A stretch of 37,814 nt of DNA, taken from Rhodococcus yananensis (GTDB lineage Bacteria > Actinomycetota > Actinomycetes > Mycobacteriales > Mycobacteriaceae). The stretch lies in contig NZ_JAIYEP010000042.1 of NCBI RefSeq assembly GCF_020515525.1, positions 1-37,814 on the forward strand, written 5' to 3'. Positions 16,199 through 25,458 of this stretch are shown here, piece after piece. A program made the translations under genes and the position numbers. How positions within the stretch are numbered: the stretch's first letter is position 1; each line of letters opens with the position of its first letter. The notes under the pieces were generated by a model that saw only the letters and a list, made by a program, of their open reading frames with translations, had not been told where the DNA came from and ran no database searches.

Positions 16199-18208
16199 AT
16201 GGACAAACGCGGTATTCGTATGCTCCGGCCCCGCAACTGGCGGCTGGCGTACAAGCTCGGTGTGGTTCTGGCCGTGCCCCTGCTCGCCGCGACCGTCCTG
16301 GGAGGCTTCCGGGTGTCCTCCCAGCTCGACGACGCCCGCCGGGCCGCTGCCCTCGCCGAACAGACCGCGGTGGCCCCCGCGATGCTGGACTTCTCACGAG
16401 CCGTGGTCACGGTGGCGACGACGGCGTCGCTCGGGTTGCCTCCCCAATTCCAGTCGTCCGAAGACATCGAACGGTCGAAGGACTTCGCCGAACGTCTCGC
16501 CGCGCGGAGCGATCTCGACCCGCAGATCGCGCAGGACATCGATTCCGTTCTGGCCGACGGTGAAGCGCTCTACCTCGCCGCGGTCGACTCGCAGATCACC
16601 CCGGACGAGCTGCGCCGCAGCACCACCGACTTCCTGGCACGCTGCCGGAACATCATCCGCGTCGTGTTCGATCTCCTCGAGGACAACGAAGCGCTGGTCG
16701 ACGCCACCAACCTCCTCACGGTGTGGGACGCCCAGGTCAACCTGCTCGCCCAGATGGAATCGTTCCGGTTCCTCGGCACCAACCCGGAAGCCGCCCAGGT
16801 GGTGGCCCAGAACGCGATGAACGACGAGGAGGCCACGCTCGGCCTGCTCCGCGGATCCCGCCTCGACACCGGGCAGATCGACGCGATGCTCACCGACATC
16901 GCGAGCCGGAGGGAGCTCGTCCGCACCCTCGAACCGACCCCCGAATTCGGTGAGCAACTGGGCTTCGCGATGATCTCCGCCTCCCAGCCGTACAGCGACG
17001 CCATCGAGAGCGCCACCCGGAAGATCACCGTGACGATGGACCGGCTCGCCTCCGACGCGCGCAGCGCCGCGATCCGCGACGCGATCCTCGTCGGCGCGAT
17101 CCTCACCTTCGCTCTCGTCCTCGCGCTGCTCGTCGCACGTTCCCTGTCGCGACCGCTGCAGCGTCTGAGGGAGGGCACCCTCGGCGCCGCCCACACCGAT
17201 CTGCCCGCGGCGATCTCCGCGGTGAAGGACGGCGCCGACATCGACAGCGTGCGACTCCCGACGATCGACGTCCACACCGACGAGGAGATCGGTCAGCTCT
17301 CCCGCGCCGTCGACTCGATGAACAACGAGGCGCTGCGACTCGCCGGTGAGCAGGCCCGCCTCCGCAAACAGGTCTCCGTGATGCTCGAAACCCTGGCGCG
17401 CCGCAACAAGAGCCTCGTGGAACAGCAGCTGTCCCTGATCGATTCACTCGAATACCAGGAGAAGGACCCGGTCCGGCTGCAGAGCATGTTCGCGCTCGAC
17501 CACCTGGCGGCCCGCATGCGCCGCACCGGCGAATCCCTGCTGGTACTCGCCGGAACCAGACCTCGCACCCGCACGGCACCGACCCTCATCTCCGATGTGC
17601 TGCGGGGCGCGGTATCGCAGGTGGAGAACTATCAGCGCGTCCGGATCGGTACGACCCCGCACGGGTACTTCACGGGCGTCGCAGTCAACGACGTCGCACA
17701 CATGATCGCCGAACTCCTCGACAACGCGCTGCGGGCCTCACCACCGAACAGTTCGGTGTCGTTCGTGCTCTCCCCCGCCGTCGACGGCGGCCTGCTGCTC
17801 GACATCGCCGACAGCGGCATCGGTATTCCCGCCGACACGCTCGAGGAGATCAACACCCGCCTCGCGCAGGGCGACGACGCCGACGTCGACGCGCCCCGTC
17901 AGATGGGCCTGTTCGTGGTGGGCCGGCTCGCCGCCCGCAACGGCATCAACGTGCGACTCCGACCCACGTTCGACTCCGAGACCAACGCGGGTGTCACCGC
18001 ATCCATCTATTTCCCGGCGTCGATGCTGCTGGACGTGGACACCCGGGCACCCGCACCGATGCGTGAGCGGCCTCGCCGCCTGACGCTGCCCCGCTCCGAG
18101 AGCGACACCGAATACACATCCGTGCCCGCGGACCGGGCCGCGCACCACCACCGGGCACCGACGGAGCCCCCGCATCCGCGGACCGACAGGACGAATCCGC
18201 CGGATTGA
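16199..18208 (+). CDS. CvnA-type sensor histidine kinase with nitrate/nitrite-sensing-like domain
   Basis: A 669-residue membrane kinase. Helix 1 lies at about 17-37 (LGVVLAVPLLAATVLGGF). An extracytoplasmic helical domain resembling the NIT sensor (about 40-290) is followed by helix 2 (about 295-318: ILVGAILTFALVLALLVA), a HAMP-like linker and a DHp-like segment (LDHLAARMRRTGESLLVLAG). The ATPase domain has N-box ELLDNALRASPP (about 503), DIADSGIGIP and MGLFVVGRLAARNGI. In actinomycetes such kinases usually begin conservons with roadblock, DUF742 and GTPase genes; none of these follows here, so this is a solitary copy. ATG 16199 has GGAAGGA and GGAGG just upstream. It is followed by a parS-bearing hairpin. 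Confidence 0.8.
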   Translation: MDKRGIRMLRPRNWRLAYKLGVVLAVPLLAATVLGGFRVSSQLDDARRAAALAEQTAVAPAMLDFSRAVVTVATTASLGLPPQFQSSEDIERSKDFAERLAARSDLDPQIAQDIDSVLADGEALYLAAVDSQITPDELRRSTTDFLARCRNIIRVVFDLLEDNEALVDATNLLTVWDAQVNLLAQMESFRFLGTNPEAAQVVAQNAMNDEEATLGLLRGSRLDTGQIDAMLTDIASRRELVRTLEPTPEFGEQLGFAMISASQPYSDAIESATRKITVTMDRLASDARSAAIRDAILVGAILTFALVLALLVARSLSRPLQRLREGTLGAAHTDLPAAISAVKDGADIDSVRLPTIDVHTDEEIGQLSRAVDSMNNEALRLAGEQARLRKQVSVMLETLARRNKSLVEQQLSLIDSLEYQEKDPVRLQSMFALDHLAARMRRTGESLLVLAGTRPRTRTAPTLISDVLRGAVSQVENYQRVRIGTTPHGYFTGVAVNDVAHMIAELLDNALRASPPNSSVSFVLSPAVDGGLLLDIADSGIGIPADTLEEINTRLAQGDDADVDAPRQMGLFVVGRLAARNGINVRLRPTFDSETNAGVTASIYFPASMLLDVDTRAPAPMRERPRRLTLPRSESDTEYTSVPADRAAHHHRAPTEPPHPRTDRTNPPD

Positions 18209-18896: not shown

Positions 18897-18945
18897 CGAG
18901 ACGGGCGGGCCGTCCGATCACCTGCGCCGAGCACAGACCGCTGGC

Positions 18946-18980
18946 TACTCTGGAACCGTTCCCGTTCCGCGACCGAGGAG
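18946..18980 (+). promoter_or_regulatory. Putative promoter -10 box and ribosome binding site for the small secreted protein
   Basis: TACTCT at 18946-18951 fits the actinobacterial TAnnnT -10 pattern. GAGGAG at 18975-18980 lies 6 nt before the ATG at 18987. No convincing -35 box is visible. Confidence 0.4.
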
Positions 18981-18986
18981 TCCTGC

Positions 18987-19379
18987 ATGCGCACGTCCGC
19001 CCGACTGTCCGCCCTCCTCGCCCTCGTCGGCGCCGTCGTCCTCGGCGCACCGGCCGTGGCATCCGCCGACGTATGGCCCAGCGAGACCGACAATCCGTTC
19101 GTGGAAAAGGATCCCCCGTTCCTGACCCCGAACGACGGCGAGTTCTGGAACCCGCTGGTCGCCAAGGATCGACTCACGTCACCGTTCGGGACCTCGCACC
19201 GCATCGAGTGCACCTCGTTCCACGGTGTGCTGGGCGAATGCTGGCAGGCCGACGACACCGGAGCAGCCGTCAAGCTCGTCCATCTGCCGTTCAACTTCCC
19301 GGCCGTGACGGGATCGGCGCTACCCGGTGGGGGTCCGTCGCACTACGTCTACCCGGGGTTCATTCCCGGGATCGGGTGA
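18987..19379 (+). CDS. Small secreted protein, function unknown
   Basis: A 130-residue protein with a clear signal peptide (basic start MRTSARLS, hydrophobic core ALLALVGAVVLG, cleavage after VASA at about residue 27). The mature part is about 103 residues, rich in Pro, Phe and Trp (DVWPSETDNPF, PNDGEFWNPLV), with two Cys (IECTSF and GECWQA) that could form a disulfide, and ends in PGFIPGIG. No catalytic motif is visible. It resembles the many small exported proteins of mycolata. The start is supported by GAGGAG. Confidence 0.75.
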   Translation: MRTSARLSALLALVGAVVLGAPAVASADVWPSETDNPFVEKDPPFLTPNDGEFWNPLVAKDRLTSPFGTSHRIECTSFHGVLGECWQADDTGAAVKLVHLPFNFPAVTGSALPGGGPSHYVYPGFIPGIG

Positions 19380-19461
19380 CCTGTCTGCTCGATCACGGCA
19401 CTGCCGACCCGCCGATTCCGGCCTGGTCACGCCGCCCCTGGGATCGGTTCGAGTACGCCAT

Positions 19462-19782
19462 GTGAAGCCGGATTCGTTGCGCCGTCGACAGCGTCTCGCC
19501 CGCAGGCCCGTCCAGGACTTCGGCGACTCCGGCATGGCCTTCAACCGCACCCGCGCCGCTGCCACGCTCACCGGTGACCCGAAACTGGTCAAGGCGACCA
19601 CCGGCACTGTCCGGCGGAAGCTATCGGCTGTGCGAGCCGACGTGCTCGTCGACGTCCTCGGCCGCCTGGCCGCCGATGTCGAGGCCGTCGGCGAAGGCCC
19701 GGTACCGGTCGAGCGTGCAGCGTTCGATGACATGGCGGAGCGGGCCCGTTGGCACCGTGAGCGGGTCGCGTACGACGACTGA
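19462..19782 (+). CDS. Small hypothetical protein
   Basis: A 106-residue basic, helical protein from a GTG at 19462. Third codon positions are strongly G/C throughout, so it looks genuinely coding, but the ribosome binding site is weak. ATG 19534 (MAFNRTRAAATL) is an alternative start. The C-terminal half (RADVLVDVLGRLAADVEAVG) is probably helical. I do not recognise a family; it could be the remaining part of a longer gene. Confidence 0.45.
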   Translation: MKPDSLRRRQRLARRPVQDFGDSGMAFNRTRAAATLTGDPKLVKATTGTVRRKLSAVRADVLVDVLGRLAADVEAVGEGPVPVERAAFDDMAERARWHRERVAYDD

Positions 19783-20294
19783 CGCGGGCCACGGCGGACT
19801 TCTCTAGTCGGCGGCATCCTCGCAGACTCCACACGCGACTGTCGCTCAGCGGAATCGCCGCCGGCGTCGCGAACCTGACCATCCCCGGTGTCACTGTGCT
19901 GGTGGTAGCCCGGTCCGCATCCGGTCCGAAGGTCCCCAACCGGTGGGCGAATGCTTTGGGCGCCCAGCGACGAGAGCTCGCCCTCGTGCCTTCCGCATGA
20001 TCGAATCGGCTTGGTGTGCGGTGTCTGTTCCAGCGAAAGGCCGGTGCGCGGGACTTTCGAGCCATTCGTTCGGGTCGAAAGATCAACTGTGGCATCCGCG
20101 CGGGTCGCGCTTGCGTAGTCCCGGCCGAGCACTATAGTTGCGGCCGGAGAAACCGTTCGGTTGGTTCCTCCTCTTCGACGTCGGGGGGTCCGTCACCACA
20201 GCATCTGTTCCCGCGTGCCTGTACAAGTACACGCCGCGGGCCAGTCGGTGCTGGGTTCTCCACGCACGTGTGACACAACGTAGACGGGGGATTT
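19783..20294. other. 512-bp region without an intact gene, upstream of the biosynthetic operon
   Basis: No intact gene is seen. On the minus strand about 19830-19975 encodes HRLGTFGPDADR followed by TPGMVRF, which weakly resembles the N-terminus of cyclase-family (PF04199) hydrolases. This may be a decayed fragment, at low confidence. The right part holds the promoter-like elements and the leader of the ThiF-like gene. The region marks the left border of the atypical operon. Confidence 0.4.
20111..20138 (+). promoter_or_regulatory. Putative promoter of the ThiF/HDO/2OG operon
   Basis: TTGCGT (20111-20116) and TATAGT (20133-20138) are separated by 16 bp, a good sigma-70-type match for this GC-rich DNA. 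Transcription from here would give a leader of about 150 nt before the GTG at 20295. Confidence 0.45.
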
Positions 20295-21107
20295 GTGTAT
20301 CCACGAGAAGTACTGTTCGGGCGCATGCTGGGATTGGTCACAGAGGAACAGTTGCGTCAACTGGGCGAGGCCACGATTGCGATCCCTGGTTGCGGCGGAA
20401 CCGGTTACACGTACGCAGAGTGCCTTGCGCGGATGGGAATCGGGAACTTCCGTCTCTCGGATACGGACCGGTTCGGGCCCGAGAACATGAACCGCCAGTT
20501 CGGCGCAACGGTGGACACTGTCGGGCGTCTCAAGTCCGACGTGCTCGAAGAGCGCTTGCGGTCGATCAATCCGGAGATCACAGTCACGCGGTTCTCGGAC
20601 ATCGACGAAGACAATGTGTCCGACTTCGTCGTCGGCGCTTCGGCGCTGTGCGACACCATCGACTTCTTCGCCATGAACGAACGCCGGATGCTGCACCGTC
20701 AGGCGCGCGCTCACAAGGTTCCCACCGTGTTGTGCTGCCCGGTCGCGTACGGCGTGACAGGGCACTACTTCAACTACCATGAGAACGATCGAATCGACTT
20801 CGATGTCCTTTTCCACCAGTCTGATTCGAACGACGAGCAGCAGAACCTCGAGAACTTCGGAAATGCTCTGGCTCCGAACGCGCTGCACAGCGCCTACGTC
20901 GACGATCCCAACCTCGACTTCGAGAACCACAAGGTTGCCTCGCTGAGCGCTTCATGTCTTATGGCAACCTCGTGGGGGGCGATGCAAGCCGTTTGTGCAA
21001 TCCTCGGACAGCCGTCGGCTTTCCGGCCCGTTCCCGAGATGTACGAGTTCGATCTTCGTGCTATGCAATTCGTTTCCAGATCCATGTCCACCGCTGTTCT
21101 CGACTGA
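20295..21107 (+). CDS. E1-like/ThiF-family adenylyltransferase
   Basis: A 270-residue single-domain E1-like protein. The nucleotide loop is PGCGGTGY at residues 31-38, with acidic residues in SDTDRFG (56-61), the family's Asn/Arg pair in ENMNRQF (63-69), Lys80 in GRLKSD and Asp120/Asp123 in CDTIDFF. These are the usual ATP/Mg-binding elements, so it should adenylate a carboxylate. The two CxxC zinc pairs of MoeB/ThiF are absent, and no rhodanese or partner ubiquitin-like gene is nearby. This argues against sulfur-carrier activation and for a small-molecule or peptide substrate, as in MccB-type enzymes (inference). The GTG start follows GGGGGA by 5 nt. It is the first gene of a tightly packed five-gene operon. 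Confidence 0.8.
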   Translation: MYPREVLFGRMLGLVTEEQLRQLGEATIAIPGCGGTGYTYAECLARMGIGNFRLSDTDRFGPENMNRQFGATVDTVGRLKSDVLEERLRSINPEITVTRFSDIDEDNVSDFVVGASALCDTIDFFAMNERRMLHRQARAHKVPTVLCCPVAYGVTGHYFNYHENDRIDFDVLFHQSDSNDEQQNLENFGNALAPNALHSAYVDDPNLDFENHKVASLSASCLMATSWGAMQAVCAILGQPSAFRPVPEMYEFDLRAMQFVSRSMSTAVLD

Positions 21108-21131
21108 TCTATCGCGACCCTCGGAGACCTC

Positions 21132-22096
21132 ATGGCATCCCTCAGTTCAGGCCTGCTCGAACAGTCGGTCGATACCGACGAACTGTCCGAACTACTCGAC
21201 CGCGCATACGAATACGAGGACTGCACCGCCCTGCTTCAGGTCCAGCAGCGCCTCGCGGAGATTCACGCGCGTTCGTTCGAGATTCCCGCCTCCCTACCAC
21301 GGACCGACTTCAACGCGTTGCGTGCCGATCTGCACTGTGCGTTGCAGATCGAAGAACGCATGCTCTCCTACGAGGATCGATTCATCGACCTCGGCGCCTG
21401 CCCGTCCACGACCGGGGGCGGGCTCGAATTCGTGCGCAGCCTGAAATCGGTCGTGCGGGAGCATCCGGCGAACCGGCACCCGTTCTACATCGACTTCTTG
21501 CCCGACAGCGCCGACATCGCCTACTACCTCGCGCAGGAGTCGGCACTGGATCCCGGTTCGACGACTTCATCGCCCTGATGCAGATCGGGATGGCTGTACG
21601 GCCGAAACTCGAACTCGCCGGCAACTACTGGGACGAGATGGGGAACGGCACCGAGCCCCGCGTGCACACCGTGATGTTCCAGAATGCCCTCGACGAGGTC
21701 GGTGCTACCGACGACTTCATCCGCGAGAATCTCAGTGTCGACGCCATGGTGTGCGGGAACCTCTCGGCCATGCTGGCGTTGCGTAAGCCCTTGATCTTCC
21801 GCGCCGTAGGCAGCTTCGCTGTAACCGAGTTCCTGTTTCCGCGCCGGTGCGCGCAGCTGCTCGAGGCGTGGCGGCGTAACGCGCTGTCCGTCGAGGGCAT
21901 CGAGTATCACCGCGAGCACATCGGCATCGATGCGCGTCACGCGTCGGGGTTCTTCAAGAACGTCATCATTCCCCTGGTCGAGGAGCGCCCCGAGGTCGCA
22001 CCCGAGATTTCCTGGGGCGCCCTGGCCCGTCTCAACTCCTCGCAGCGCTATCTCGAATCCACCCTGCAGACCCTGACCTACGGGAGTGCCCGTTGA
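21132..22096 (+). pseudogene. Haem-oxygenase-like di-iron oxidase (iron-containing redox enzyme family), frameshifted
   Basis: Two overlapping frames make one 321-residue protein if one C is restored in the CCC run at 21552-21554 (…ALDP then RFDDFIALM…). Corrected numbering gives candidate metal ligands E136 (YYLAQES), E169 and H179 (WDEMGNGTEPRVH, ten apart), E233 (AVTEFLF) and H263, D267, H270 (HIGIDARH). This is the full HDO ligand pattern, including the extra His seen in N-oxygenase members such as SznF, as far as I recall them. Such enzymes use O2 and two Fe ions to N-oxygenate, cleave or desaturate amino-acid substrates. ATG 21132 follows GGAG. The gene overlaps the next by TTGA. As written it yields a 148-residue truncated product. 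Sequencing error is possible. Confidence 0.82.
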
Positions 22097-22803
22097 ACAC
22101 CGATCTCGCCCAGCGCGGCTATGCCCTCGTGGACGGATTGTTCGCCACGGAGGAGCAACTGGCCTCCTACGAGAACTGTCCGCACGATCCGTTCATGGGC
22201 AACGGCACCCGGTACAAGCGATTCTCCCAGTTCAAACTCGACCATGACAGCGACTGTTGGGGCATCGAGCTGCTGCCAGCACGTGCCTACACTGCGCCGA
22301 AGGAGTTCAACCCGGTTGGTGGCGGATTCAAGCGCCCCTACGAACCGCTCGAGGCGGACTTCAGTGGGATCATCACCAAACTGGCGGACCAGCTCGGCCT
22401 CGACCGCACGACAGCCTGGCAGATCACCGTGCACCAGAACCGCAGCATCGCCGAACCCCGGCGCCACGGCCAGCTGACCCCGGAAGGGCGGCACAAGGAC
22501 GGTCACGAGTTCGTCACCATCAGCGCGTTAGCCCGTTCCAACGTCACTGGCGGACGCACCCGGGTGTGGGGCGGTGAGGAGGCCGAACAGCCGCTGTGGG
22601 AACACACGATGGTCCCCGGTCAGACATTGCTGCTCGACGATCTGACCGTCCTGCACGATGTGACCGATATCGAAGCGGCCACCGACGTCCGCGGCACCCG
22701 AGACATCCTTATCGTTGCCTATTCACGTTGGGACGAAAGGTGGTACGGCGACGAGCACGACGCGGCCGTGCTCGAACCGCGCACCGTCCCGGGCCAGATG
22801 TGA
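22093..22803 (+). CDS. 2OG-Fe(II) dioxygenase family protein (PF10014 / isoleucine-dioxygenase-like)
   Basis: A 236-residue protein of the 2OG-Fe_Oxy_2 type, whose characterised members hydroxylate free amino acids. The iron triad is H134-x-D136 (GRHKDGHEF) with H188 (TVLHDV). Arg203 in GTRDILIVAYS is placed to bind 2-oxoglutarate. NVTGGRTRVW (150-159) matches the family's beta-strand after the HxD. The TTG start at 22093 overlaps the HDO stop codon and is supported by GGGAG 6 nt upstream, which suggests translational coupling. It is intact. In this operon it probably hydroxylates an amino acid or its oxidised derivative; the substrate is unknown. Confidence 0.8.
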   Translation: MNTDLAQRGYALVDGLFATEEQLASYENCPHDPFMGNGTRYKRFSQFKLDHDSDCWGIELLPARAYTAPKEFNPVGGGFKRPYEPLEADFSGIITKLADQLGLDRTTAWQITVHQNRSIAEPRRHGQLTPEGRHKDGHEFVTISALARSNVTGGRTRVWGGEEAEQPLWEHTMVPGQTLLLDDLTVLHDVTDIEAATDVRGTRDILIVAYSRWDERWYGDEHDAAVLEPRTVPGQM

Positions 22804-22825
22804 TCGGCTGGAGAGGACACCACCT

Positions 22826-23773
22826 ATGAGTATTTCCTTGTTCCTCGACGGAGCAGCCGGCACCACGGGCCTTCTGATCGAAGACCTGCTGCGACGCAGC
22901 CACCCCGAGTTCGAGATCCTGCAATTGTCCGACGACGAGCGGAAGGATCCCGCCGCCAAGCGTGCCCTGCTCGCCGAGGCCGAGTGCGCGGTGCTGTGTC
23001 TGCCGGACGCGGCGGCTGTAGAGTCCGCCGCTCTGGCAGATGAACTGGGCGTGCGAGTGCTCGATGCCAGCAGCGCGCATCGGGTGTCGGACGGCTGGGC
23101 GTACGGGCTGCCCGAACTGGATCAGGGCGCCCAGCGGCATCGGATCAGCGGTGCGTGGCGGGTGGCGAACCCGGGTTGCTACGCCACCGGTGCGCTCCTG
23201 TTGCTCAACCCGCTCTCGCGTGCGGGTCTCCTCCGTCCCGACGCGCACATTCCCATCTTCGGGATCTCGGGCTACAGCGGAGGCGGTCGAGCGATGCTGC
23301 AGCGCTTCGATCGCGACGGCGCGACATTGCGCACCGGCAGCTACGCCCACGACCACGAGCACAAGCACGTGCGCGAGATCGTGATGCACAGCCCAATCGA
23401 ACGCAAGCCGCAGTTCGTTCCGTCCGTCGGCGCTTTCGAGCGCGGGATGTCGGTGACAATCGCGCTCGGTCGCGAAGCCCTGACCGGCGAGATCGATGCG
23501 GCCACCATCCTCGAGCACTACGAACAGTCCTATTCGGTCGAGCAATTCGTGCAGGTGTGCACCGCGCAGCCGGACGACCCGAACGGTCTGCTCATGGTCG
23601 ATGACGTCGTGGGCACCAACGTCGCTGCCGTGCACTGCTTCGACGACGGCGCCGACCTGACCTTGGTGTGTCATCTGGACAACTTGGGCAAGGGCGCGTC
23701 GCTGGCCGCGATTCAGAACCTGAACATCATGTTCGGCTACCCGGAGGGGCTCGGTATCGGTGACCAACACTGA
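22826..23773 (+). CDS. ArgC-like N-acyl-gamma-glutamyl-phosphate reductase (short, type 2)
   Basis: A 315-residue member of the semialdehyde-dehydrogenase/ArgC family. The N-terminal NAD(P) site is FLDGAAGTTGLLIED (6-20), the catalytic Cys is C118 in ANPGCYATGALL, ISGYSGGGRAM follows at about 147-157, and the His-rich HDHEHKHVREI contains the likely general base. ArgC reduces an acyl phosphate to an aldehyde. No argB, argJ or argD genes surround it, so it is probably a dedicated pathway copy and not the arginine enzyme (inference). ATG 22826 follows GGAGAGGAC, 22 bp after the dioxygenase gene. It overlaps the dapF-like start by 14 bp. Confidence 0.82.
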   Translation: MSISLFLDGAAGTTGLLIEDLLRRSHPEFEILQLSDDERKDPAAKRALLAEAECAVLCLPDAAAVESAALADELGVRVLDASSAHRVSDGWAYGLPELDQGAQRHRISGAWRVANPGCYATGALLLLNPLSRAGLLRPDAHIPIFGISGYSGGGRAMLQRFDRDGATLRTGSYAHDHEHKHVREIVMHSPIERKPQFVPSVGAFERGMSVTIALGREALTGEIDAATILEHYEQSYSVEQFVQVCTAQPDDPNGLLMVDDVVGTNVAAVHCFDDGADLTLVCHLDNLGKGASLAAIQNLNIMFGYPEGLGIGDQH

Positions 23774-24275
23774 GCTTCTGCCGTTCGCAAAGTACACCGC
23801 GCTGGGTAACGACTACCTCGTCGTCGACGAGGAGCACTTCGGCACGACGCCGAACCCGCAGCGCATTGTCGAGTTGTGCGAGCGCCGATTCGGTGTCGGT
23901 GCCGACGGCATACTCGTCAGCCAACCCTCCGTGGCGGGTGGACCGTTCCGGATCCGGATCTTCAACTCCGACGGCAGCGAATGTGAGCGCAGCGGCAACG
24001 GATTGCGCATCTTTGCTCGATGGTTGCTCGATACCGGTGCAGTCGATCGTGATTACTTCGAGGTCTACTGCCTCGCCGGGATATCGCCGGTCGAGGTCAA
24101 CGAGGACGGCATGCCCACCGTTGCAATTGTACAACTGTTCTCGGGTTGGTTGCGGCAGCGATGCCGGGTGCATTTCATGCGGAACATCCGGGCGGCGGTC
24201 GGGGCGAAGGAACACGCTGCCGAACCTGTGTTGTCGTTGACCGGATCGGATGGAACAGCACAGTATTCGGCATGA
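23760..24275 (+). pseudogene. DapF-like epimerase, N-terminal half, fused to a transposase remnant
   Basis: Residues 1-122 are clearly the first half of the diaminopimelate epimerase fold: FAKYTALGNDYLVVDE, ERRFGVGADG and RIRIFNSDGSECERSGNGLR. The first catalytic Cys of DapF (…E-x3-C-G-N-G…) is Ser78 here, although a Cys lies at 75. The normal second half, with the second catalytic Cys (ACGTG region), is missing. From about residue 124 the frame reads IS256-type transposase sequence and stops at 171 residues, against about 280 for the family. The GTG start overlaps argC. The Cys to Ser change precedes the break in the protein and may mean the ancestor did a different proton-transfer or dehydration reaction. 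Confidence 0.8.
24132..24245 (+). mobile_element. IS256-type transposase remnant
   Basis: The segment WLRQRCRVHFMRNIRAAVGA has the QRCRVHFMRN hallmark of the IS256/IS1081-like transposase group. The elements at 1-293 and 2679-4140 differ here, with CCWFHKQFN at the equivalent place. It covers about 38 residues, with no ends recognised. It lies exactly where dapF homology stops, so the insertion and later decay of a mobile element probably truncated the operon. Confidence 0.6.
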
Positions 24276-24546
24276 CTCGTTGATCACTGCGCGTCCTGCG
24301 GGCCGATCCGAAGTCCACCACTCCACGGGGCACTATCGTGCTTCCGCAAGCGACACGTTCGAGGATGCTTCAGGATGTCGATGGACATCGTCCTCGGACG
24401 GCGCAGTCGACGGTGCCGACACACGCGTGGAAGGATGGGTCGCGGATCCCGATCCTTCGCGACACCGAAGAGATCGTCGGCCCGCGGCCCGTCCACAGAT
24501 CGAACACCGACGAGCGCATCGTCGCCGTGTCGTGTTGGATGAGTTC

Positions 24547-25458
24547 ATGCCGTCACGGTTCTCCCAGCTCCGCCGGTGGCGTTCCGGCGCCTCGACACAC
24601 ACGCGGCTGCGTGACCTGACGGGCACGCTCGTCGTCGTCACCGGCGGCGCCGGCGGGATCGGACGCGCCGTGGCCCGCGCGTTCGCCGCCGAAGGCGCCA
24701 TCGTCGTCGTCGCGGATGTCGACATCGACGGTGCCCGGGAAACCGTCGACCTCATCGACACGCCACCGCCGTCCGCGGGCGGATCCACCGCGGTGTTCGG
24801 CGGCGGCGCTCACGCATACGAACTGGACGTCTCCGACGAAGCGCAGGTCCGCCGGTTCGCCGAGACCGTCCGCGCACGGCACGGTGTCGCGGACGTGATC
24901 GTCAACAATGCCGGTATCGGCGTGATCGGCCCGTTCCTGGAGACCCCGTCCACGGCATTCGAGAACGTCGTGGACGTCAACTTCTGGGGTGTGGTCCACG
25001 GCTGCCGCGTGTTCGCCGAACAGATGGTCGAACGCGGCACGGGCGGTCACGTGGTGAACGTGTCGTCTGCGGCGGTCCTCGCACCGCAACGGAACATCGC
25101 CGCGTACTCGACGACGAAGGCGGCCGTACTGATGCTGTCGGAGTGCCTGCGCGCCGAATGGGTCGAACACGGTATCGGTGTGACGGCCGTGTGCCCGGAT
25201 CTCGTGGACACCGGGTTGATCCGCAACGCCGAATACGTCGCCCACGATCCGGAACGGGGCATCGCGCGGCGAGCCCGCGCACTGTCGGTGTACGAGCAGT
25301 TGCACGTTCCACCCGAACGCGTCGCCGACGCCGTCGTCGCGGCGGTCCGCCACAACCGCCCGGTGGTCACCGTGTCGCCACGGGCGAGGACCAGCGCATG
25401 GATCGCCCGGCTCACCCCTCAGGTGATGCGAGCCGGAACGAGATTCGACATCGACTGA
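24547..25458 (+). CDS. Short-chain dehydrogenase/reductase, EphD-like SDR domain
   Basis: A 303-residue classical SDR. The cofactor motif is TGGAGGIG at 32-39, with ADVDIDGA after beta-2 (NADP/NAD choice unclear), NNAG at 120-123, the catalytic Ser near 174 (VNVSSAAV) and YSTTK at 187-191. It matches best the SDR half of EphD-type hydrolase-SDR fusions of mycobacteria (LRDLTG lead-in, MVERGTGGHVVNVSSAA). No alpha/beta-hydrolase half is encoded upstream, so it is a stand-alone domain or a truncated fusion. The ATG has a weak GGATGAG upstream. The 271 bp before it (24276-24546) contain nothing I can identify. It converges on the cutinase gene with 15 bp between stops. Confidence 0.8.
   Translation: MPSRFSQLRRWRSGASTHTRLRDLTGTLVVVTGGAGGIGRAVARAFAAEGAIVVVADVDIDGARETVDLIDTPPPSAGGSTAVFGGGAHAYELDVSDEAQVRRFAETVRARHGVADVIVNNAGIGVIGPFLETPSTAFENVVDVNFWGVVHGCRVFAEQMVERGTGGHVVNVSSAAVLAPQRNIAAYSTTKAAVLMLSECLRAEWVEHGIGVTAVCPDLVDTGLIRNAEYVAHDPERGIARRARALSVYEQLHVPPERVADAVVAAVRHNRPVVTVSPRARTSAWIARLTPQVMRAGTRFDID

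What the first reader, a model, noticed from the sequence alone, without database searches (positions are those of the whole stretch)
20295..24275. Decaying operon: E1-like enzyme + HDO di-iron oxidase + 2OG dioxygenase + ArgC-like + DapF-like
Five consecutive genes with overlaps or short gaps combine an ATP-dependent carboxylate-activating fold, two different iron oxygenase families that usually act on amino acids, an acyl-phosphate/acyl reductase and an epimerase fold. None has the arg, dap or sulfur-carrier neighbours its name would imply. I know no described pathway with this exact set. By eye the GC content is lower than the flanks. I infer a horizontally acquired route to a modified amino acid or small peptide: activation, reduction to an aldehyde, epimerisation and two oxidations. 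The frameshift and the truncation suggest that it is no longer functional here.
Basis: partly seen in the sequence, partly recalled or inferred. Interest (0 to 1): 0.8.

Follow-up and report, generated by a model that had tools for sequence, protein, structure and literature searches.

The report
Broken nitrocyclopropane amino-acid gene cluster
A bacterial chromosome carries the damaged front half of a travelling gene set that, judging by its closest studied relatives, turns lysine into a rare amino acid with a nitro-bearing three-membered ring and then changes it further by steps for which I found no description.

Summary
The five genes are real: they are the front half of a conserved gene set found in Pantoea, Thiomonas, Glaciimonas, Halomonas, Billgrantia and Pseudomonas (a reduced variant in Aliivibrio and Moritella) and, nearly whole, in an unnamed species of the window's genus. 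The di-iron oxidase is of the HrmI/BelK kind (lysine to 6-nitronorleucine); the 2OG enzyme is most likely of the BelL/HrmJ kind (to 3-(2-nitrocyclopropyl)alanine, Ncpa). The 'DapF', placed like belM/hrmT, has serine at both catalytic cysteine positions in 11 of 11 full-length cassette copies, while 11 of 11 housekeeping copies keep both cysteines, so it is hardly an ordinary epimerase. E1, ArgC, a GntC/VioD-like PLP enzyme, a PAT-type GNAT and an exporter complete the set; I infer that they mirror ArgA-B-C-D logic on Ncpa. In the window the oxidase frame is broken, DapF is cut beside an IS256-like remnant, and the rest does not follow. Four congeners lack the insert at this site, and the congener with the cluster has it elsewhere.

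The parts
20295..21107 (+). E1/ThiF-like adenylating enzyme, open frame (GTG start)
   Evidence: PF00899 E=2e-31; nearest NCBIfam model PRK08223, 188 bits, below its cut-off of 266; 93% identical to the congener copy, 41-54% to the proteobacterial ones
21132..21578 (+). HDO di-iron oxidase, first piece (HrmI/BelK kind); homology leaves this frame near 21554
   Evidence: tblastn to 8 of 10 relatives; carries the first predicted iron ligand (Glu)
21554..22096 (+). HDO di-iron oxidase, second piece in another frame, with the other five predicted iron ligands
   Evidence: PF14518 E=9e-31; 10 of 10 relatives; 97% identical to the congener copy
22093..22803 (+). 2OG-Fe dioxygenase, probable nitrocyclopropanase (BelL/HrmJ kind), intact
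   Evidence: PF10014 E=1e-45; 52.9% identical to PDB 9dq0 over 225 positions; iron triad and 2OG arginine invariant in 11 rows
22826..23773 (+). ArgC-type acyl reductase, intact
   Evidence: TIGR01851 287 bits, cut-off 229.85; Cys of NPGC and HKH invariant in 11 rows
23760..24127 (+). 5' part of the DapF-like gene (belM/hrmT kind), serine at the first catalytic cysteine position
   Evidence: PF01678 E=1e-20, TIGR00652 93.6 bits, below the cut-off; SGNG motif; DNA match to the congener stops at 24127
24123..24218 (+). IS256/Mutator transposase-like remnant at the break
   Evidence: NF033543 E=3e-4 over 32 residues, PF00872 E=0.007, both below cut-off; no second copy of this DNA in the own genome beyond a 23-base match
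18904..24553 (.). stretch without a DNA match at the same site in four congeners (the insert and its edges)
   Evidence: blastn of the window against L045-L048

Best explanation
The locus is the decayed front half of a mobile gene cluster for an Ncpa-type (3-(2-nitrocyclopropyl)alanine) metabolite. [quoted passage not shown] Inferred: the GNAT acetylates the alpha-amine, the E1 adenylates the carboxylate, the ArgC-type enzyme reduces it to an aldehyde, the PLP enzyme transaminates or cyclises the product, and an exporter releases it. The DapF-like protein is not a cysteine-type epimerase and may do acid-base chemistry at the acidic carbon that bears the nitro group. In this genome the pathway is dead or dying.
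For: HDO family profile: HrmI E=8e-137 against SznF E=1e-9 as next best; the congener HDO is 45.5% identical to HrmI over 299 positions with Glu, His, Glu, His, Asp, His all aligned. The window's 2OG enzyme is 52.9% identical to 9dq0, with the triad kept. HDO, 2OG and a DapF homologue are exactly the three gene pairs shared by the belactosin and hormaomycin clusters, whose HDO and 2OG enzymes make 6-nitronorleucine and Ncpa (PMC10764440, passages; HrmI also PMC13108848, passages). Conserved set. A ferredoxin gene stands before the HDO in the proteobacterial clusters (Pfam on the Halomonas copy only). Mobility. Ser/Ser DapF.
Against: No enzyme of this E1-bearing cluster type has been assayed. 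That 9dq0/8jms are BelL homologues is my inference: the PDB calls them 'BsmA domain containing protein', and the review passages give no PDB code for BelL. The residue between the two iron ligands (HxD) is Lys in the window and congener, Gln in Pantoea, Arg in Pseudomonas, His in 9dq0, so substrate or stereochemistry could differ. The roles given to E1, ArgC, GNAT and the PLP enzyme rest on family membership alone; the PLP enzyme is nearer to cyclases (GntC, VioD) than to ArgD, and scores far below their cut-offs. Aliivibrio and Moritella lack DapF and, by eye, the PLP enzyme.
Confidence: 0.72

Rival explanations
1. The HDO and 2OG pair has diverged and carries out another oxidation of lysine or a lysine-like amino acid (such as N-hydroxylation plus C-hydroxylation), without a nitrocyclopropane.
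For: The HxD middle residue differs between clusters; the Aliivibrio and Moritella 2OG enzymes are only 27-29% identical to the congener's.
Against: Near full-length similarity to HrmI with the six ligands kept; the 2OG enzyme is as close to 9dq0 (52.9%) as BelL is to HrmJ (49%); the third cassette gene is there too.
Confidence: 0.17
2. ArgC, GNAT and the DapF homologue are self-protection (spare targets or a detoxifying acetyltransferase) rather than pathway enzymes; E1 and the PLP enzyme finish the product.
For: The GNAT is nearest to arsinothricin and phosphinothricin resistance acetyltransferases (116 bits to ArsN1a, cut-off 170); ArgC scores as a true ArgC.
Against: A DapF without its cysteines cannot stand in for the housekeeping enzyme; ArgC is kept in 10 of 10 relatives, the variant type included.
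Confidence: 0.15
3. One reading: activation, reduction, epimerisation and two oxidations of an amino acid or small peptide.
For: The enzyme families are as named.
Against: Serine at both catalytic positions of the DapF homologue; the oxygenases point to lysine.
Confidence: 0.1
4. The pathway still works in the window's strain: the HDO frame change is an assembly error and the missing genes lie elsewhere.
For: The HDO piece downstream of the frame change shows strong constraint (dN/dS 0.04), odd for a long-dead gene; the genome is a draft of 178 contigs.
Against: DapF is cut, with the 3' part not found by the DapF model in the own genome; the best own-genome matches of the cluster's PLP enzyme and GNAT are distant (37% over part; 32%). 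The exporter was not searched.
Confidence: 0.06

Closest known systems
Hormaomycin Ncpa cassette (HrmI, HrmJ, HrmT)
   Same: HDO of the same family (45.5% identity of the congener copy to HrmI), a 2OG enzyme and a DapF homologue together
   Different: Hormaomycin is assembled by NRPSs (PMC10764440); E1 and ArgC are not among the gene pairs that bel and hrm share. I had no full hrm gene list.
Belactosin Acpa cassette (BelK, BelL, BelM, BelN)
   Same: The same three genes; bel-like plasmid clusters of Streptomyces sp. NBC_01216 and Agrobacterium vitis have HDO-2OG-DapF next to a molybdopterin oxidoreductase
   Different: No molybdopterin enzyme noticed in the E1-type clusters (read by eye); E1, ArgC and GNAT instead. 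Belactosin uses ATP-grasp ligases.
Arginine acetyl cycle (ArgA, ArgB, ArgC, ArgD)
   Same: N-acetylation, ATP-dependent carboxylate activation, ArgC reduction and a PLP enzyme: the same four kinds of step; ArgC is above the TIGR01851 cut-off
   Different: E1 adenylation instead of the ArgB kinase; the PLP enzyme is fold-type class I/II (PF00155) near GntC/VioD, not ArgD
GntC (guanitoxin) and VioD (capreomycidine) PLP cyclases
   Same: Best NCBIfam models for the congener PLP enzyme: 190 and 150 bits
   Different: Far below their cut-offs (415 and 391); substrate not arginine-derived by this reading
MccB / PaaA (E1 enzymes of microcin C7 and pantocin A)
   Same: E1-type adenylating fold in a natural-product pathway
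   Different: Weak hits (46 and 39 bits), below TcdA (87) and ThiF (61); I noticed no precursor peptide, but did not search for one systematically

Membership tests
HrmI/BelK lysine N-oxygenases (HDO) | Sequence similarity over the whole protein and the six-residue 3-His/3-carboxylate iron set | tested here: met
   Met by the congener and eight relatives. In the window all six residues are present but spread over two frames.
HrmI/BelK lysine N-oxygenases (HDO) | Six-electron oxidation of L-lysine to 6-nitronorleucine | not testable with these tools
   Needs an assay
BelL/HrmJ nitrocyclopropanases | PF10014 fold with HxD...H iron triad and 2OG arginine | tested here: met
   the motif is HKD in the window
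BelL/HrmJ nitrocyclopropanases | High identity to a characterised member | tested here: inconclusive
   52.9% to 9dq0, which I infer to be a BelL homologue; BelL and HrmJ sequences themselves were not at hand
BelL/HrmJ nitrocyclopropanases | Converts 6-nitronorleucine to Ncpa | not testable with these tools
   Needs an assay
Diaminopimelate epimerase (DapF) | Two catalytic cysteines (CGNG and (A/S)CG(T/S)G motifs) | tested here: not met
   Ser at both sites in 11 of 11 full-length cassette copies and at the first site in the window; Cys at both in 11 of 11 housekeeping copies. TIGR00652 still scores two full-length copies above its cut-off.
ArgC (N-acetyl-gamma-glutamyl-phosphate reductase, TIGR01851) | Score above the equivalog cut-off and catalytic Cys/His (residues recalled) | tested here: met
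   287 bits against 229.85; C118 and H179/H181 invariant in 11 rows. Substrate not tested.
E1/ThiF adenylating enzymes | Glycine-rich ATP loop, the Arg, Lys and Asp residues of MoeB-type adenylation (recalled); CxxC zinc pairs in MoeB/ThiF (recalled) | tested here: inconclusive
   Loop, NRQ, Lys80 and Asp120 invariant in 10 rows, but by eye no CxxC pair in the window's protein; activity and substrate unknown
Belactosin/hormaomycin-type gene clusters | HDO, 2OG and DapF homologue together | tested here: met
   8 of 10 E1-type loci, the congener and the window, broken
Belactosin/hormaomycin-type gene clusters | Peptide-assembling enzymes (ATP-grasp ligases or NRPSs) with the cassette | tested here: inconclusive
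   None noticed by eye in the printed ORFs, which are partial lists; no profile search for them was made

The most novel reading that the evidence does not exclude
A second, unrecognised family of Ncpa-derived natural products, spread by mobile DNA between Actinomycetota and Proteobacteria, in which Ncpa is not built into a peptide by NRPSs or ATP-grasp ligases. Instead an ArgA-B-C-D-like quartet, with an E1 adenylase in place of the acyl kinase, remakes its carboxylate into an aldehyde, amine or ring; and the cysteine-less DapF homologue (by extension BelM and HrmT) is a nitronate tautomerase or epimerase acting on the nitro-bearing carbon.
Probability: 0.3. Interest if true: 0.75.

Novelty: new variant of a known kind. 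Interest (0 to 1): 0.55.

Why it matters
Hormaomycin and belactosin are the only products with this kind of ring that the passages I read describe. This gene set gives readable, largely uninterrupted clusters in named bacteria (Halomonas, Thiomonas, Pseudomonas, Pantoea) whose product is unknown and whose first two steps can be predicted and assayed at once. It also questions the suggested role of belM and hrmT as lysine-supplying DAP epimerases (PMC10764440): every cassette copy examined here, two belactosin-like ones included, lacks the catalytic cysteines although the database model still names it DapF. I did not have BelM or HrmT themselves.

Tried and rejected
Considered and rejected: five unrelated genes side by side (co-occurrence); a peptide-modifying (RiPP) cluster with E1 as in MccB or PaaA (weak similarity; the MbnB/TglH-type gene near the Moritella locus was noticed in that locus only, by eye); a lysine- or arginine-supply operon (the own genome has a separate canonical DapF, and the cluster copy lacks its cysteines); the missing half lying elsewhere in the genome (DapF 3' part not found by the family model; PLP enzyme and GNAT only distant matches; the exporter was not searched).

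Led nowhere: the plasmid search with E1 gave only relatives under 60% identity, best 33.6%, none inspected; own-genome search for another copy of the junction DNA; promoter and terminator scan (0 promoter-like sites, 1 terminator-like, fewer than in shuffles); E1 and HrmI-like HDO in a sample of 396 Actinomycetota genomes found only the own genome; E1 in 390 genomes of the order of L008's genome found 2, that genome itself and one not inspected. Paper searches for the five-gene combination gave nothing on it. PMC10725191, PMC11611017, PMC8810744 and PMC13420876 are not held, so the primary BelL/HrmI papers were not read. Searches (mangotoxin; beta-lactone peptides), passages only, did not bear on the question. 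Hits H22 and H24 (L015, L017) have an HDO but only a poor relative of the 2OG enzyme; H38 (L018) has an HDO in another setting.
Full report
1. What is there. The five genes are present in order on the + strand: E1/ThiF 20295-21107, HDO 21132-22096 in two frames, 2OG-Fe dioxygenase 22093-22803, ArgC-type reductase 22826-23773, and the 5' part of a DapF-like gene from 23760. DapF similarity ends at about 24110-24127. The ORF's remainder matches about 30 residues of IS256/Mutator transposases, weakly and below the curated cut-offs (NF033543 E=3e-4; PF00872 E=0.007). GC of the five genes is 0.59-0.66 against 0.67-0.71 in five neighbours.

2. A conserved cluster. A scan of genome contigs (one genome for each of 84,980 species) with E1 alone gave 10 loci: two Pantoea, Thiomonas, Glaciimonas, Halomonas, Billgrantia, two Pseudomonas, Aliivibrio and Moritella (the scan works through six short peptide patterns, so this is a lower bound). 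tblastn of the window's proteins found HDO, 2OG and ArgC relatives in 10 of 10 and DapF in 8 of 10, not in Aliivibrio and Moritella. The ORFs (L002) show the usual proteobacterial order HDO - 2OG - E1 - PLP enzyme - ArgC - DapF - GNAT, mostly with a 4Fe-4S ferredoxin gene in front (by eye; Pfam on the Halomonas copy). EamA-type (Glaciimonas) and LysE-type (Thiomonas) exporter genes follow in two loci checked with Pfam. The PLP enzyme was aligned from 7 of the 10 loci plus the congener, the GNAT from 7 of the 10 plus the congener, the Aliivibrio one only 21% identical. L002 also has both ORFs; in L007 two GNAT motifs lie in one frame behind DapF, not examined further. Aliivibrio and Moritella have a variant with desaturase-like and flavin-oxidase-like genes and a 2Fe-2S ferredoxin (named by eye).

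3. The congener. Of 18 genomes held of the window's genus, 2 have E1: the window's own and G002. G002 carries E1 - HDO - 2OG - ArgC - DapF - GNAT - PLP enzyme - MFS exporter at 3.476 Mb of its contig C2; the first seven are open, and the MFS gene is split between two frames. The window matches it at 86.9% over 20104-24127 and then stops. dN/dS between the two is 0.04-0.31 over six pieces, so most of the divergence took place under constraint; the damage in the window is recent or, for the HDO, possibly an assembly error.

4. Mobility. In four congeners examined of 17 others held (G002, G006, G011, G017), the phosphoglycerate-mutase-like gene left of the insert and the SDR gene right of it lie 0.85-2.6 kb apart; in the window they are 5.7 kb apart, and window 18904-24553 has no blastn match there. 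In G002 the SDR gene is at 0.314 Mb and the cluster at 3.477 Mb of the same contig. Upstream of the G002 cluster lie an IS4/5-type transposase gene and a gene with only helix-turn-helix matches, which looks to me like part of an IS630-type transposase. Beside the Halomonas cluster is a gene with an integrase core and Mu-transposase C-terminal domain, beside the Pantoea one (L003) are DnaB and ParA-like genes. Two large ORFs beside one Pseudomonas cluster, which I took for recombinases, gave no Pfam match.

5. The core chemistry. A profile search of solved structures puts the HDO next to HrmI (E=8e-137; next SznF, E=1e-9). The G002 copy is 45.5% identical to HrmI over 299 positions and has Glu, His, Glu, His, Asp, His at HrmI 161, 204, 258, 288, 292, 295, which I take for the 3-His/3-carboxylate set described for HrmI (PMC13108848, passages). 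In the window the first lies in the first piece, the other five in the second. The window's 2OG enzyme is 52.9% identical over 225 positions to PDB 9dq0, which I infer to be a BelL homologue, with the iron triad and the 2OG arginine kept. The review PMC10764440 (passages) states that BelK and HrmI turn L-lysine into L-6-nitronorleucine, that BelL and HrmJ (49% identical) cyclise it to Ncpa, that belL homologues are found in many Actinomycetota and Proteobacteria and between them make all four stereoisomers, and that belM and hrmT may encode DapF enzymes that could supply lysine. Three of the five genes thus correspond to the Ncpa cassette. Two plasmid clusters, Streptomyces sp. NBC_01216 (L014) and Agrobacterium vitis (L016), have HDO-2OG-DapF followed by a molybdopterin oxidoreductase, as expected for belactosin-like clusters; no ThiF or ArgC gene is listed within 12 kb, in gene tables that are incomplete.

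6. The DapF homologue. In 9 proteobacterial genomes (those of L003-L011), the congener and the window's genome, the housekeeping DapF has Cys at both catalytic positions (11 of 11). The cassette copies have Ser at the first position in 12 of 12, the window included, and Ser at the second in 11 of 11 full-length copies: nine E1-type (the two Pantoea copies nearly identical) and the two belactosin-like plasmid copies. This speaks against DAP epimerisation. Since deprotonation next to the nitro group is critical for the cyclisation and that carbon stays acidic in Ncpa, I suggest, as inference only, that the protein moves protons at that carbon.

7. The extra genes. E1 keeps the residues that I recall as those of adenylation in MoeB. 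ArgC scores above its equivalog cut-off. The GNAT is nearest to ArsN1a (116 bits, cut-off 170), the PLP enzyme to GntC (190, cut-off 415) and VioD (150, cut-off 391). GNAT, ATP-dependent carboxylate activation, ArgC reduction and a PLP enzyme are the four kinds of step of ArgA, B, C and D; I infer that the quartet acts on Ncpa's carboxyl end with adenylation in place of phosphorylation. No result shows this. LuxR-type genes lie beside three clusters (Thiomonas, there with a LuxI-type gene, and both Pseudomonas), which hints at quorum control.

8. State in the window. Homology passes from one frame to another near 21554, and three residues that the congener has shortly upstream are absent (sequences). 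DapF is cut. The cluster's GNAT, PLP enzyme and exporter do not follow it; the best own-genome matches of PLP enzyme and GNAT are 37% over part of the length and 32%. 'Decaying' is supported.

9. Rarity. E1 of this type: 2 of 101 own-and-related genomes; 1 of 396 sampled Actinomycetota, the own genome; 2 of 390 genomes of the order of L008's genome, including that one. HrmI-like HDO at E<=1e-40: 1 of 396, the own genome.

10. Verdict. The core is a known kind of pathway. The set as a whole is a variant that I did not find in the papers searched (open-licence papers only; the primary bel/hrm papers were not available). Hence: new variant of a known kind.

Noticed in passing
window 16199-18208 (+): A 669-residue sensor-kinase-like gene (named by eye) just left of the phosphoglycerate-mutase-like gene had no tblastn match in the four congener stretches, although DNA on both sides of it matches there: it may be a second insert near this site.
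   Followed up: no
L013 15969-17454 (unnamed congener G002): The MFS exporter gene at the end of the congener's cluster is split between two frames, so this copy may be decaying too.
   Followed up: no
L004, L008, L010: LuxR-type regulators beside the Thiomonas and both Pseudomonas clusters, with a LuxI-type synthase gene in Thiomonas: possible quorum-sensing control.
   Followed up: partly
L006 4525-6114 (-) and L004 14910-16568 (+): A B12-binding protein gene, by eye a radical-SAM type, lies near the Halomonas and Thiomonas clusters; only the Halomonas copy was scanned with Pfam (B12-binding domain).
   Followed up: partly
L011 4373-5215 (-) and 13345-14277 (+): Near the Moritella cluster lie an MbnB/TglH/ChrH-type gene (Pfam) and a gene that looks by eye like lysine 2,3-aminomutase.
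   Followed up: partly
L014 13727-14671, L016 13408-14304: The public annotation calls the Ser/Ser DapF homologues of belactosin-like plasmid clusters 'diaminopimelate epimerase' although both catalytic cysteines are missing.
   Followed up: yes
L015 and L017 (Streptomyces plasmids): A HrmI-like HDO is followed by a gene only 23% identical to the 2OG enzymes and without the HxD motif; a VlmB-like gene, a flavin reductase gene and (L015) a seryl-tRNA ligase gene lie about 8-11 kb away.
   Followed up: no
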